From contig NZ_CP097128.1 in NCBI RefSeq assembly GCF_023330685.1, positions 620,001 to 684,000 of the forward strand: DNA of 64,000 bases, in the 5' to 3' direction. The DNA is from Conexibacter sp. DBS9H8. GTDB lineage: Bacteria > Actinomycetota > Thermoleophilia > Solirubrobacterales > Solirubrobacteraceae. The position numbers and the translations under genes are program-made. Within the stretch, counting starts at the first letter, position 1; every line of letters starts with the position of its first letter. Under the pieces are notes generated by a model. It was not told the origin of the DNA. It ran no database searches and worked only from the letters and a program-made list of their open reading frames with translations. This document shows, piece by piece, positions 7,229 to 22,418 of the stretch.

Positions 7229-8321
7229 GCGGACCGATCCGCTGGGGAGCGCGCGGCCGGTGTTGGTCGTGGTCGCTGCCTGAGCCGCCGGCCTGATCGG
7301 GGGACGACCCGCTCGTCATCCGGTACCGATCGTCCCACAACAATGGGTGATGAGCGGTGCCCGCAGTGCTGTGGAATCGACGGAGGGCAGTGGCGAGAGG
7401 GGGGCGTCGGCGTCGCAGGCCGCGCAGGCGTGCGGAATCGACGAGTGCCCTGGTGGGCGGTGCCCTGAAGACGTCGGGCGGCGCGCGTACGCGCTGGAGG
7501 GGGTGGCTGTCGCCGGCTCGGGGTGCCGCAGCCCGAGGGCTCCAGGGACGATCCGGAGACCGGTGTCGTCGAAGACGAGCCGGAGCCCACAGCCCGACTG
7601 TGACGTGGACATGTCAGCTGGGCCGGGATCTGGCAGGCGGGTTTTGCCGCAGTGAACCAACGGCCAGCGATCGTCCTCGGCACGGTAGGCAATGAGGTCG
7701 CCGTGGCTGAGCCCGCCGGTGAGGTCGATGCGTGCGGTCGGGCGGTCGCGACGGTCCGGGCCGCGCTTGAGGCGGCTCCCCGGCCAGCGTGCCAGGCGGG
7801 CTCGTCAAGACAGACGTGCCGATCGCAGTCGCCATCAGGCCGCGAGGGTGGTCGATCGCGACCGTCGGCGTCCTGCTGTCGCGCTGCTCACAGACCAGGT
7901 ACACCGGCCGTCCGTCCCCACCGAGCCGTCCGTCCCCACCGGGCCGTCCGTCCCCACCGGGCCGTCCGTCCCCACCGAGGTCGATTTTTCGTCATATCGA
8001 CGAATCTGCGCCCTCGCTGGCCCGATCCCGTGACGGCCGGGGCGTCACAGGTCGTACCGGCGGGCCGAATGGCCATCCTGAATCGGTGTTCAGGGAAGCT
8101 CGATGATGGCCAGGCACACACCGCCCCACCGTTGGCGGCGGGTTTCTGTTCACCGGGAGCTCGAGGAGTCCGCGGGAACGAGCTCGGGTCCACGACGGCG
8201 GTCGACGGCGACCGCGATCGCTGCGAGCCCGAGGAACAGCCGCCACGGGCGGACGTGCGCCCCCGCGCCCCCGCGCCGCCGGCGCAGCCCAGCGGCCAGC
8301 CCCGGGGACGACCCCGCCGAT
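7229..8321. other. Gene-poor region with no convincing coding sequence
   Basis: About 1.1 kb between the glycosylase gene and the heat-shock operator. The open frames here have biased, arginine- or proline-rich translations and no recognised domain. The most protein-like stretch is on the minus strand around 7316-7800: a frame reading RIDLTGGLSHGDLIAYRAED (near 7720-7665) continues to LVFDDTGLRIVPGALGL but is closed by a TGA near 7800, with unrelated frames upstream. This may be a decayed gene of unknown family. The region also holds a tandem repeat at 7908-7979. I see no tRNA and no clear insertion-sequence ends. Confidence 0.5.
7908..7979. repeat. Tandem repeat, four copies of an 18-bp unit
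   Basis: Four head-to-tail copies of CCGTCCGTCCCCACCGRG, differing only at the penultimate base. The unit length is a multiple of three, but no convincing gene covers it. It looks like a minisatellite formed by slippage in a decaying region, not a CRISPR array, because there are no spacers. Confidence 0.9.
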
Positions 8322-8348
8322 AAATCTGCTAGTCTGCGACTGAGATTT
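8322..8348. promoter_or_regulatory. HspR-type (HAIR-like) operator upstream of dnaK
   Basis: AAATCT (8322-8327) and AGATTT (8343-8348) are separated by 15 bp, with the inner right arm reading GACTGAGATTT. The same outer arms and spacing occur before clpB (19774-19798). HspR of other actinobacteria binds HAIR, CTTGAGT-N7-ACTCAAG, at dnaK and clpB. The right half here (ACTGAGA) partly matches that half-site. HspR is encoded in the operon itself, so negative feedback is expected. Binding is inferred. Confidence 0.65.
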
Positions 8349-8424: not shown

Positions 8425-10335
<1,911 letters not shown>

Positions 10336-10336
10336 C

Positions 10337-11146
10337 GTGAGCGCGCATCGCCACGAGCCCAGGCCAGCGGCGGCGGACCCCGGGTCCGCCGCCGACCCGG
10401 CGGCCTCCGCCCCCGAGGAGCCGTCACCCGGCGCCGAGGCCGGCACGGCCCCTGATCCGGCGGCTGGGGTAGACACGCCCCCCGGTCCGGCGGGGCAGGC
10501 CCCCAATCCGGCGGGGCAGGCCCCCGGTCCGGCGGGGCAGGCCCCCGGTCCGGCGGGGGTGGGTGACGACGCAGCGGGTGGGGCCTCCGGCCCGACGGGT
10601 GTCGGTGCCGACGCGTCCGGAACCGACGCCGGCGGCCCCCCGGCGGCCGCCGCCGACCTCCATGGGGCGACCGCTCCGGAGCCCGGCGGCGACGGACGGA
10701 CGGAGGTCGATGAGCTCGCCGCCGCGACCGCCCGGGCCGAGGAGTACCTCGGTCTCGCCCAGCGGACCAAGGCCGACTTTGACAACTACCGCAAACGGGC
10801 GGCCCGGGATGCGGCGCTCGCGGCCGAACGTGGGGTGCTCAAGCTCGTCAAGGAGCTGCTGCCGGCGCTGGACAACCTCGAGCGGGCAATCACCCACGCC
10901 CCGGCTGAAGATCCGCTGTTGGAGGGGATCAAGCTCGTGCACAGCGATCTCCTCGGCGCGCTCGCCCGAGCGGGCATCGAGGCGTACTCCCCGGCGGGTG
11001 AGAGCTTCGACCCCCAGCTCCATGAGGCGGTCGCCCAGCACTCACGAGAGGGGATCGAGGCGGGGACCGTGATCGAGGTTTACCAGCAGGGTTACCGGCT
11101 CGCGGACACCGTCCTGCGACCCGCCCGCGTGCTCGTGGCCGCCTAG
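10337..11146 (+). CDS. grpE: Nucleotide exchange factor GrpE with long low-complexity N-terminus
   Basis: GrpE releases ADP from DnaK. The conserved domain occupies about residues 125-265: [20 protein letters not shown] in the coiled coil, [12 protein letters not shown], then [21 protein letters not shown] at the end. Before it lie about 120 residues of Ala/Pro/Gly-rich sequence including collagen-like [14 protein letters not shown] repeats, longer than in most GrpE proteins (about 180-220 residues in total). I placed the start at GTG 10337, one base after the dnaK stop, because earlier frames overlap dnaK. Confidence 0.95.
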
Positions 11147-11164: not shown

Positions 11165-12337
11165 ATGGCCGGCCCACCCGACTACTACAAGGTTCTCGGC
11201 GTCTCCAAGAACGCCACCGAGGACGAGATCAAGAAGGCCTACCGAAAGCTCGCCCGCCAGTACCACCCGGACCGCAACCCGGGGGACAAGGCGGCGGAGG
11301 AGAAGTTCAAGCAGATCTCCCAGGCCCATGACGTGCTGTCGGACGCGGACAAGCGCAAGGCCTATGACCGGACCAACGGGCCCCTCGGCGGGTTCACCCA
11401 GAACTTCGGGCAGGGGTTCGATGCCTCCAACATCGGTGGTTTCTCCGACATCCTCTCCAACCTGTTCAGCGGCGCCGGGGGGGTCGGCGGCCCCGGGGCG
11501 GGAGCTCGCAGCGGCGCGGCCCAGCGCGCCCCGGAGGCCCGCGGGCGCGACCTGGAGACCGAGGTGCACCTCAGTTTCGACCAAGCGATCCACGGCACCC
11601 AAGTCCCGCTGGCGGTCCCGACCTCCCACGCGTGCCCGACCTGCCATGGCACCGGCGCCAAGCCGGGGACGAGCCCGCGGGTCTGCCCGGTCTGTGGCGG
11701 TCGCGGCGTCGAGGCACAGAGCCAGGGGATCTTCTCGATCTCCCAGCCGTGCTCGAACTGTGGCGGCTCGGGGACGGTCATCGACGATCCGTGTCCGACG
11801 TGCGCGGGGACCGGTGCGCAACGGTCGATCAAGCGGCTGCGGGTCAACATTCCCCCCGGCGTCAAGGACGGAACGCGGATCAAGCTCGCCGGCAAGGGCG
11901 ATCCGGGACTGCGCGGAGCGCCGCCCGGGGATCTGTACGTCATCTGCCGCGTCACGTCCTCCCCGGTGTTCAAGCGCGTCGGCGAGAACCTCGAGGTCGA
12001 GGTTCCCCTCGCTCCCCACGAGGCGATGCTCGGCGCCGTCATCGAGGTGCCGACGCTCAAGGGCAGCAAGCGGCTGCGGGTGCCGCGCGGAACCGCTCAC
12101 GGCACCGTCCAGCGGCTCCGTGGCGAGGGTCCACCGCGCGGGGCCGGGAAGGGCAACGGCGACCTCCACTACCGGTTCATCATCGACATCCCGACGACGC
12201 TCACGCCCGAGCAGGCGGCCGCCGTCGACCGGCTCGCCGCCGTCAGCCCCGGGGATCCGCGCGCCCAGCTGTTCAAGGATGCCGGGGTCAGCCGAGAGGG
12301 CCCCGAGTCGCGACCGCACACCGAGGAGGTCGCCTGA
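11165..12337 (+). CDS. dnaJ: Hsp40 co-chaperone DnaJ
   Basis: A type I DnaJ of 390 residues that delivers substrates to DnaK and stimulates its ATPase. The J domain (about 6-70) has the HPD motif in [13 protein letters not shown] Gly/Phe-rich linker follows ([19 protein letters not shown]). The zinc region has four CxxCxGxG repeats: [24 protein letters not shown] and CPTCAGTG. The C-terminal substrate-binding fold includes [21 protein letters not shown]. It lies 18 bp after grpE, with AGGAGA upstream of the ATG, and its stop overlaps the hspR start (TGATG). Confidence 0.98.
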
Positions 12338-12780
12338 TGGCGACCCGCCGCGTCCGCACGACCCGCGTGGAGGTCGATTCCGACCGCGGGGTGTTCATGA
12401 TCTCCGTCGCGGCCGAGCTCGCCGACATGCACCCCCAGACCCTGCGTATGTACGAGGCCCGGGGTCTGATCGAGCCCAAGCGCTCACCCAAGGGGACGCG
12501 GCTCTACTCTCACGCCGACGTCGAGCAGCTCAAGCGGATCCAGGCGATGACCGCCGAGCTCGGGCTCAACCTCGCCGGGGTCGAGAGGGTCCTCGAGCTC
12601 GAGGCGCAGCTCGACTCGATGACCCGCAAGGTCCAGGCGCTCGAGCGTCGCGCCGAGAATCTCAAGTCTGAGGTGCAACGGCTCGAGGCGCTGCGGCGTG
12701 AGCTCCGGGCTGAGATCGTGCCCTACGTGCGAGCCGGAGCGCTCGTGCGTCGCGCCGACCGCGGGCGCGGGCAATCCTGA
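12337..12780 (+). CDS. hspR: MerR-family heat-shock repressor HspR
   Basis: A 147-residue MerR-type regulator. Its winged-helix region reads [20 protein letters not shown], then [20 protein letters not shown], which matches actinobacterial HspR. It is followed by a coiled coil (about 75-125: [20 protein letters not shown]). HspR represses dnaK and clpB at HAIR repeats with help from DnaK, in Streptomyces and Mycobacterium. Being last in the dnaK operon and overlapping dnaJ by one base supports the identification. The likely targets in this window are the repeats at 8322-8348 and 19774-19798. Confidence 0.93.
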
Positions 12781-17673: not shown

Positions 17674-19775
17674 TGGTCGCCACCACGCTGGCCGACAGCG
17701 CGCTGCTCGTGCTCGCGAGTCTCGGCCTCGGCGTGGCCGCGCTGCGGATCGCCTCCGGCCTCGCACCGGCCGGCCTGCCCCGCGTCATCGCGGCCGTCGC
17801 CCTCGCCGCGGCCGGCGCCGTCGCCGAGGCGCTCGGCCTCGGCCTTGCCGGCCTCGGTGGCAGCCCGGTCGCGCTCACCCTCGCTGCGGTCCTCACCGCG
17901 GCGGTGACGGTGGTACTCACGCCCCGTCCCGGGGTCGGCCTCCTCAGTGAGGCGGCCACATCGTGGGCGGCAGCGAGCTGGCCGGCCCGCCTTGGGCTCG
18001 GCGCCGCGGGCGGCGGCCTCGCCGCCGTCCTGCTCATCCAACTGCACCGGCCGGTCCTCGGCCAGGACGCGGTCACCTACCACCTGCCGGAGGTGATCGG
18101 TTTCGTCCAGTCCGGGCACACCGGGGCGGTGCAGTCCCTCTTCTACGGGCTGCCGGTCGGCAACTATCCGATCACCGAGGAGGTCCTGCTCGCCTGGGCG
18201 ACCGGCATCGCCCACGGGTTCGCGCCCGCGCTCGTGCTGACGGTCGCCAACGTCGGCCTGCTGCTCGGCGCCGGCTGGCTCACGCTCGCCGAGCTGGAGG
18301 TCCCCGCCGGGCTGCGCGTCCTCGCGCTTGCCGCGCTCGCGCTCGTTCCGCTGATCACTCAGGCGTGGGTGCAGCCGGGCACCGACCTGGAGGCGACCGC
18401 GTGGATGGTCTGCACCGTCGCCCTCGCGCTGGCGGCGCGCCGGCACCCCGGCCTCCTCGCGGCGGCCGTCGTCTGTGCCGGTCTCGCGCTCGGCACCAAG
18501 ACGACGGTGCTCACCTACAGCGTCGGCATCCTCCTCGTCGCCGCGGTTCGCCAACGCCGCGAGCTCGCCCGGTCCTGGCGCCCGCTCGTCGCGGCCGTCC
18601 TGCTCGCCCTGGCCACGGGCGCGATCTGGTACCTGCGCAACTGGGTCCAGCACGGCTCGCCGCTGTGGCCGTTCTCCTCCTTTCCGGGCGGAGCCCCCGA
18701 GCCGGCGATCATCGCCTACCTGCACACGCCGCTGCTCGCCAGCCTTGGCCCGACGCTGTTCGACCATCTCGGCGCCTACGTCGCGGCCCTGTCGGGGTCG
18801 GTGCCGCTGATCCTCGCCGGGTTTCTCGCCGCCCTCGGACTGCTCGCGGGCCTCCGACGCCTGCACCTGCCACGCCGCTACGTGCGGATCGGCGCCGCCG
18901 GCCTGATCGTGATCCTCGGGGCACTCGAGTACGCCCTCGGCCCGGTCACGGGCCTGCCCCGCCATGGGGGCGTGCTCGTCGCCGTCGTCGGCTCGACGCT
19001 GCGGTACCTGTTCCCCGTCATCGCCGCCGGCACCCTCGCCCTCGCCCTCGCCGCCGCCGACCCCCGGCCGCCGATCGCCTGGCTCGCGCGGCTCGTGCTC
19101 GCCGGCGCACTCGTCTGGGATCTCAGCTCGGACCTTCCCGCCCACTTCAGCCTGGCCTTCGACGGCTGGCTGTGGCCGGGGCTCGGGACCGGATTGCTGC
19201 TCAGCGTCGTCCTCGGCGCCCGCGCCCGCGCCCGCGTGAGGGGCCGCTCGTCGTCTGCCCGCCTCGCCCGCCCGGACGCCGACTCCCAACCGGCGCCCGG
19301 GCCCGCGCCCCGCCCCGTCCCGGTCGTGTTCTCCCTGCTCACCGGAGTGGCGCTCGCTGCGCTGTTCACGGTCGGACTCACGGTCGGCTCCCGCCACTTC
19401 AGCCTCCGCCACGCGGCCGTCAGCACCGACTTCGCGACGGCGGTGAGCGCCTTCCTCGACACCCAGCCGGCTTACACGGCCACCGACGCCCCGGTCGCGA
19501 CGACCAAGACCGGCCTCGCTCCCCTCGCCGGGGACCGGCTCCAGCACCGGCTCTCGCTGATCCCGGTCGATGCGAGCTGTGCGCGTGTCGCGGCGATTGG
19601 ACGCCGGCACTGGATCGTGCTCGCGATCACCCCGCCGGCGGCCCGCAGCGGCATCCTCGCGCGGATCGCCCCCTACGGGAGCGCCGAGGCGTGCCTCGCC
19701 CGCCGCCCGCCCGCCTTCGATGACGGCCAGTACGCCGTCTACGCGCCTTGGCAGACCCTCGCCAACCTGTCATAA
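17673..19775 (+). CDS. Polytopic membrane protein, probable GT-C glycosyltransferase
   Basis: A 700-residue protein with about a dozen hydrophobic segments and a region GQDAVTYHLPEVIGFVQSG early in the chain, reminiscent of the acidic loop of GT-C (GT39/GT83-like) transferases. No definitive signature is seen, so the call is by architecture and context. It starts at ATG 17673, overlapping the GT2 stop (TGATG). That GT2 could supply polyprenyl-phosphate sugar, the usual GT-C donor. The C-terminal 150 residues (SRHFSLRHAAVSTDF onward) look extracytoplasmic. It ends 78 bp before clpB. Confidence 0.65.
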   Translation: MVATTLADSALLVLASLGLGVAALRIASGLAPAGLPRVIAAVALAAAGAVAEALGLGLAGLGGSPVALTLAAVLTAAVTVVLTPRPGVGLLSEAATSWAAASWPARLGLGAAGGGLAAVLLIQLHRPVLGQDAVTYHLPEVIGFVQSGHTGAVQSLFYGLPVGNYPITEEVLLAWATGIAHGFAPALVLTVANVGLLLGAGWLTLAELEVPAGLRVLALAALALVPLITQAWVQPGTDLEATAWMVCTVALALAARRHPGLLAAAVVCAGLALGTKTTVLTYSVGILLVAAVRQRRELARSWRPLVAAVLLALATGAIWYLRNWVQHGSPLWPFSSFPGGAPEPAIIAYLHTPLLASLGPTLFDHLGAYVAALSGSVPLILAGFLAALGLLAGLRRLHLPRRYVRIGAAGLIVILGALEYALGPVTGLPRHGGVLVAVVGSTLRYLFPVIAAGTLALALAAADPRPPIAWLARLVLAGALVWDLSSDLPAHFSLAFDGWLWPGLGTGLLLSVVLGARARARVRGRSSSARLARPDADSQPAPGPAPRPVPVVFSLLTGVALAALFTVGLTVGSRHFSLRHAAVSTDFATAVSAFLDTQPAYTATDAPVATTKTGLAPLAGDRLQHRLSLIPVDASCARVAAIGRRHWIVLAITPPAARSGILARIAPYGSAEACLARRPPAFDDGQYAVYAPWQTLANLS

Positions 19776-19798
19776 TCTCAGTCAGAACGACTAAGATT
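19774..19798. promoter_or_regulatory. HspR-type (HAIR-like) operator upstream of clpB
   Basis: AATCTCAGT-N7-ACTAAGATT, a nearly perfect inverted repeat 55 bp before the clpB start. Half-site spacing is identical to the actinobacterial HAIR (CTTGAGT-N7-ACTCAAG), and four of seven bases in each half match. The outer arms AATCT-N15-AGATT are shared with the dnaK leader at 8322-8348. This would bring clpB under HspR control together with the dnaK operon. Confidence 0.7.

Positions 19799-19853: not shown

Positions 19854-22418
<2,565 letters not shown>

What the first reader, a model, noticed from the sequence alone, without database searches (positions are those of the whole stretch)
8322..8348. 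Same operator-like repeat in front of dnaK and clpB
Both leaders contain AATCT-N15-AGATT with the inner right arm GACTNAGATT; the clpB copy fits the HAIR half-site spacing exactly (AGT-N7-ACT). With hspR in the dnaK operon this points to a lineage-specific HAIR variant and a two-operon HspR regulon, a concrete motif that could be used to find more members.
Basis: partly seen in the sequence, partly recalled or inferred. Interest (0 to 1): 0.6.

Follow-up and report, generated by a model that had tools for sequence, protein, structure and literature searches.

The report
Recoded heat-shock (HspR) operator in Solirubrobacterales
The repeat in front of dnaK and clpB is real: it is the switch sequence on which the heat-shock repressor HspR very probably acts in this group of soil bacteria, a respelled and widely conserved version of the known Streptomyces switch that also controls the protease gene lon and, in relatives, further protein-repair genes.

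Summary
Observation confirmed. AATCT-N15-AGATT occurs twice in the window, 102 bp before dnaK and 80 bp before clpB; shuffles give none. The genome is a Solirubrobacterales (Thermoleophilia) chromosome. The motif ATCTNAGT-N7-ACTNAGAT is a lineage-wide heat-shock operator: of 73 places with at most one mismatch that I classified in relatives, 71 lie at clpB, lon, groESL, hsp20, htpX or Clp-type ATPase genes, and the reversed pattern never matched. clpB loses its own site when it abuts hspR (11 of 13) and keeps it otherwise (40 of 40). HspR is the only plausible binder: encoded in the dnaK operon, an NCBIfam HspR equivalog, and the core AGT-N7-ACT is that of HAIR. Corrections: (i) in this genome the regulon is dnaK operon, clpB, lon and probably an MFS transporter, not two operons; (ii) the ACTNAGAT half-site also occurs in Coriobacteriia and other Thermoleophilia; (iii) the dnaK copy is a conserved asymmetric site whose left arm is overwritten by the -10 box (by the -35 box TTGACA in Coriobacteriia). 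Relative to HAIR two adjacent bases per arm are swapped; this tracks a wing residue of HspR, but too few independent changes exist to prove it. Binding is untested.

The parts
8323..8347 (+). dnaK-operon operator AATCTGCTAGTCTGCGACTGAGATT (asymmetric form)
   Evidence: conserved in 54 of 57 distinct Solirubrobacterales dnaK leaders
8327..8335 (+). extended -10 element TGC-TAGTCT overlying the left operator arm (no good -35 in this genome)
   Evidence: read from sequence; TG at this position in 42 of 57 leaders, -10 hexamers mainly CATACT/TACACT
8339..8347 (+). strict right half-site ACTGAGATT
   Evidence: ACTNAGATTT nearly invariant in relatives
8425..10335 (+). dnaK
   Evidence: Pfam HSP70 3e-262
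10332..11146 (+). grpE (start codon inferred)
   Evidence: ORF; matched by relatives
11165..12337 (+). dnaJ
   Evidence: Pfam DnaJ, DnaJ_C
12337..12780 (+). hspR, the presumed binder
   Evidence: NCBIfam NF047375 HspR equivalog 115.9 bits, cut-off 105
19748..19753 (+). clpB -35 TTGGCA, 17 bp before the -10
19771..19776 (+). clpB -10 CATAAT, its 3' AAT being the first AAT of the operator
19774..19798 (+). clpB operator AATCTCAGTCAGAACGACTAAGATT (full palindrome)
19854..22418 (+). clpB
   Evidence: ORF; syntenic clpB in relatives

Best explanation
The repeats are operators of the heat-shock repressor HspR (MerR-type, encoded as fourth gene of the dnaK-grpE-dnaJ-hspR operon). An HspR dimer, as in Streptomyces and mycobacteria probably stabilised by DnaK, binds ATCTNAGT-N7-ACTNAGAT lying over the -10 box and transcription start and blocks RNA polymerase; when heat draws DnaK away, repression of the dnaK operon, clpB and lon (and here probably an MFS transporter) is lifted, and newly made HspR and DnaK restore it. 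At dnaK one half-site is given up to the -10 box, leaving one strict half-site. Shown: sequence, conservation, position on predicted promoters, gene set, dependence on operon layout. Inferred: binding by HspR, DnaK as co-repressor, heat as signal.
For: Two sites in window, none in shuffles. Own genome: clpB, lon, MFS and dnaK leaders. Order: 59 of 121 genomes, genus: 26 of 28 genomes have a match at <=1 mismatch, reversed-pattern control none. 71 of 73 classified places sit at protein-quality-control genes. dnaK leaders 54/57 with <=1 mismatch against 2/2280 shuffled; clpB leaders 32/53 with <=2 mismatches against 0/2120. clpB carries a site in 40/40 cases when >=47 bp from hspR and in 2/13 when <=31 bp, Fisher p about 1e-9. 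An hspR-like gene was found in 121/121 order genomes, in nearly all as a close orthologue. HspR equivalog. Graded intermediates to canonical HAIR: CTTGAGT-N7-ACTCAAG, TTGACA-N7-ACTCAAG, TTGACA-N7-ACTNAGAT.
Against: No binding or expression data. The dnaK copy in this genome has a weak left arm. Since every genome of the order keeps hspR, co-loss of motif and hspR could not be tested. The correlation of HspR residue 56 with the half-site rests on about 5 changes in the tree and gives no significance once ancestry is controlled.
Confidence: 0.91

Rival explanations
1. The motif is the operator of another heat-shock regulator (for example HrcA, CtsR/ClgR or an unknown one), and hspR in the operon is coincidental.
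For: No direct binding data; the outer arms differ from HAIR.
Against: HrcA has its own operator CIRCE in the same genomes, at groESL. The AGT-N7-ACT core, the dnaK/clpB/lon gene set, and the gradation to canonical HAIR at the same place in the dnaK promoter point to HspR.
Confidence: 0.05
2. The conserved block at dnaK is a promoter or 5'-UTR element (for example a special sigma-factor promoter) rather than an operator.
For: The left arm coincides with an extended -10 element and the site lies at the expected transcription start.
Against: The strict part, ACTNAGATTT, lies downstream of the -10; the clpB and lon sites are full palindromes in another register to the -10; in family f3 they lie upstream of the -35; in Coriobacteriia the block fills the -35/-10 spacer. 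One promoter element cannot take all these positions.
Confidence: 0.03
3. Chance palindromes in two leaders.
For: The dnaK copy alone matches the full motif with 3 mismatches, which shuffles reach now and then.
Against: (conservation and shuffle controls).
Confidence: 0.01

Closest known systems
HspR/HAIR of Streptomyces (CTTGAGT-N7-ACTCAAG; PMC6102357, PMC7464140, citing Grandvalet 1999); lon as HAIR/HspR member (Sobczyk 2002, cited in PMC9775585)
   Same: Orthologous repressor, dnaK-grpE-dnaJ-hspR operon, AGT-N7-ACT core, targets dnaK, clpB, lon.
   Different: Half-site TCTNAGT instead of CTTGAGT: the two bases at -7,-6 are swapped and -4 is free; outer A (-8) fixed. dnaK operator asymmetric, with one arm inside a promoter box.
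HspR + HrcA co-regulation of groESL in Campylobacter jejuni (PMC7464140)
   Same: In Solirubrobacterales family f3 groESL has an HspR-type site upstream of the -35 and CIRCE downstream of the -10, the layout described for C. jejuni.
   Different: Other phylum, other half-site; in the window's own genome only two CIRCE-like copies were found and no HspR-type site beside them.
GlnR/TnrA (MerR-like, TGTNA-N7-TNACA; PMC9249791)
   Same: Best PDB sequence matches of this HspR; same N7 spacing.
   Different: Other bases read, other signal, no chaperone control.

Membership tests
HspR repressor | Passes the curated HspR equivalog model | tested here: met
   NF047375 115.9 bits, cut-off 105
HspR repressor | Encoded in the dnaK-grpE-dnaJ-hspR operon | tested here: met
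HspR repressor | Binds the operator, helped by DnaK; released on heat shock | not testable with these tools
   needs EMSA/footprint and expression data
HAIR operator | Inverted repeat with AGT-N7-ACT core upstream of dnaK/clpB/lon in hspR-bearing actinobacteria | tested here: met
   Full at clpB; the own lon copy has one mismatch, in the core; at dnaK only the right arm ACT is kept
HAIR operator | Exact consensus CTTGAGT-N7-ACTCAAG | tested here: not met
   6 mismatches at best in both leaders of the window; hence called a variant, not a canonical HAIR
CIRCE/HrcA | TTAGCACTC-N9-GAGTGCTAA | tested here: not met
   In the own genome at <=3 mismatches CIRCE occurs only as two copies at C1:165761-165846, not at dnaK or clpB

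The most novel reading that the evidence does not exclude
HspR specificity was recoded in the evolution of several actinobacterial classes: a change in wing 1 (Arg56 against Leu/Met, with Thr54) switched the outer bases of the half-site between CAAG and NAGAT while the core stayed fixed, and at dnaK one half-site was overwritten by a promoter box (-35 in Coriobacteriia, -10 in Solirubrobacterales), giving a half-operator that sets the strength of autoregulation. This would be a traceable case of co-evolution of a repressor and its operator.
Probability: 0.4. Interest if true: 0.62.

Novelty: new variant of a known kind. Interest (0 to 1): 0.48.

Why it matters
It gives a usable motif (ATCTNAGT-N7-ACTNAGAT, with the dnaK form ATCTGCNANANTNNNACTNAGATTT) for the heat-shock regulon of classes in which I found no HspR work in the held library, shows that canonical HAIR searches would miss it, extends the likely HspR control to groESL, hsp20 and htpX there, and offers a natural series for testing how a MerR-type repressor and its operator changed together.

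Tried and rejected
Canonical HAIR in the two window leaders: rejected (6 mismatches). The AGT-N5-ACT reading of the dnaK copy: rejected, not conserved. A phylogenetically controlled test of HspR residue 56 (and 21, 38, 41, 44, 54 and others) against half-site type: raw association strong (98+43 of 157; Fisher p 3e-22) but only 5 changes of residue 56, 12 independent pairs, no significance; kept as a hypothesis only. The one-mismatch match at C1:505718 is inside a coding region and is taken as chance. The MFS gene as regulon member: exact site 32 bp before its start, orthologues at 65-69% identity keep 3-mismatch versions at the same place in two genomes and not clearly in a third; probable, not certain. 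A1 was used for the collection scan; the slip lies outside the stretches used as patterns. Two sites (L056, L059) could not be tied to a protein-quality-control gene.

Full report
Observation. The window holds AATCT-N15-AGATT exactly twice, at 8323-8347 before dnaK (start 8425) and at 19774-19798 before clpB (start 19854); 100 dinucleotide shuffles gave none. The clpB copy is the full palindrome AATCTNAGT-N7-ACTNAGATT. The dnaK copy keeps the right arm ACTGAGATT and only the outer part of the left arm; it has three mismatches to the full motif.

Setting. The chromosome (3.64 Mb, 72% G+C in the window) belongs with Solirubrobacterales (Thermoleophilia): the nearest named HspR relatives are Solirubrobacterales MAGs, Conexibacter and Solirubrobacter. 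The operon dnaK-grpE-dnaJ-hspR is present and its layout, usually with clpB near by, recurs throughout the order. The HspR protein passes NCBI's HspR equivalog model; AlphaFold gives a confident winged helix with recognition helix 33-41 and wing strand 55-58 (shallow alignment).

Genome-wide. Exact matches to ATCTNAGT-N7-ACTNAGAT: clpB and an MFS transporter gene; one mismatch: lon and one place inside a coding region. Base composition predicts about 0.0003 exact and 0.02 one-mismatch places. So the regulon here is dnaK operon, clpB, lon and probably the MFS gene, whose orthologues in two relatives keep degenerate versions at the same place.

Relatives. With at most one mismatch the motif is found in 59 of 121 genomes of the order and 26 of 28 of the genus, while the same pattern read backwards is found in none. 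I classified 73 distinct places: 71 lie at clpB, lon, groES-groEL, hsp20, htpX or Clp-type AAA+ ATPase genes (in one, L065, the start codon is inferred). Distinct dnaK leaders carry ATCT-N11-ACTNAGAT with at most one mismatch in 54 of 57 cases, shuffled leaders (base composition kept) in 2 of 2280; clpB leaders carry the full motif with at most two mismatches in 32 of 53, shuffled ones in 0 of 2120.

A natural experiment. Where clpB starts within 31 bp of the hspR stop, so that it can be read from the dnaK promoter, 11 of 13 leaders lack a site; where it starts 47 bp or more away, 40 of 40 have one (at most 3 mismatches to the full motif, or at most 1 to the dnaK form) (Fisher p about 1e-9). 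This is expected of an operator and not of a random or structural element. The loci are related to each other, so the p-value overstates independence.

Promoter anatomy. At clpB and lon of the window's family a -10 box (CATAAT, GATAAT, TATGAT) ends in the first bases of the left arm; the window's clpB promoter is TTGGCA-N17-CATAAT. At dnaK the -10 box sits inside the left arm: ATCTGC[CATACT]NNNACTNAGATTT, often with TG before it, and the best -35 matches are better than at random places. In Coriobacteriia and other Thermoleophilia the dnaK site is aACTTGACA-N7-ACTNAGATTTTATaaT: the left arm is the -35 box and the right arm fills the spacer. An hsp20 leader of a relative in the window's own family carries both forms side by side (L287). 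In family f3 the clpB and groESL sites lie directly upstream of the -35. Such varied positions, all over or next to the core promoter, fit repression by occlusion (inference).

Relation to HAIR. The Streptomyces consensus is CTTGAGT-N7-ACTCAAG (PMC6102357, PMC7464140). Large actinomycete-like genomes sampled here have exactly that at dnaK (L200-L202, L231). Others have TTGA(C/T)A-N7-ACTCAAG, others TTGACA-N7-ACTNAGAT. Against HAIR the present half-site TCTNAGT swaps the two bases at -7,-6 and frees -4. A scan with the outer bases left open found a site in 161 of 171 dnaK leaders. The outer pair is GA with Leu/Met at HspR residue 56 in 98 of 106 and not GA with Arg56 in 43 of 51 loci. Residue 56 lies in the wing. 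But it changes only about five times on the DnaK tree, and a test on independent pairs is uninformative, so co-evolution is a hypothesis. Correlations between recognition helix or wing positions and sites are known in metal-sensing MerR proteins (PMC5045206, which does not mention HspR).

Known and new. HspR control of dnaK, clpB and lon is known (PMC8223512, PMC9775585). Dual HspR/HrcA control of groESL is known in Campylobacter (PMC7464140). New, as far as the held library shows, are the respelled half-site, its spread, the asymmetric dnaK operator overlaid by a promoter box, and the added targets. Absence from this open-access library is weak evidence of novelty; curated regulon databases were not searchable here.

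Verdict.

Noticed in passing
L053, L057, L058, L060 (groES leaders of family f3): groESL carries an HspR-type site upstream of the -35 and a CIRCE-like repeat downstream of the -10: likely dual HspR/HrcA control, while the window's own genome shows two CIRCE-like copies (C1:165761, 165820) and no HspR-type site there.
   Followed up: partly
G000:C1:2006622-2006644 (L015 4623-4645): Exact HspR-type site 32 bp before an MFS (MFS_1/MFS_3) transporter gene, an unusual candidate member of a chaperone regulon.
   Followed up: partly
L287 about 1930-2030 (hsp20 leader, minus strand): Two adjacent sites: a palindrome ATCTCAGTCCACCAGACTGAGA and then ACTTGACA-N7-ACTGAGATTTCATACT.
   Followed up: no
L071, L294, L330, L331: HspR-type site shortly before a Clp-type AAA+ ATPase gene with an N-terminal Cys-rich segment (L071: 26 bp before the start).
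   Followed up: no
L147 (CAMCVN010000034.1): Record titled Bifidobacterium breve MAG, but the dnaK-hspR-clpB region is Solirubrobacterales-like: probably a mislabelled or contaminated bin.
   Followed up: no
window 7902-7979: 18-bp tandem repeat (4.4 copies, CACCGAGCCGTCCGTCCC) some 340 bp upstream of the dnaK operator.
   Followed up: no
window 10479-10614: 21/42-bp tandem repeats in the 5' part of grpE, coding a Pro/Gly/Ala-rich N-terminal extension.
   Followed up: no
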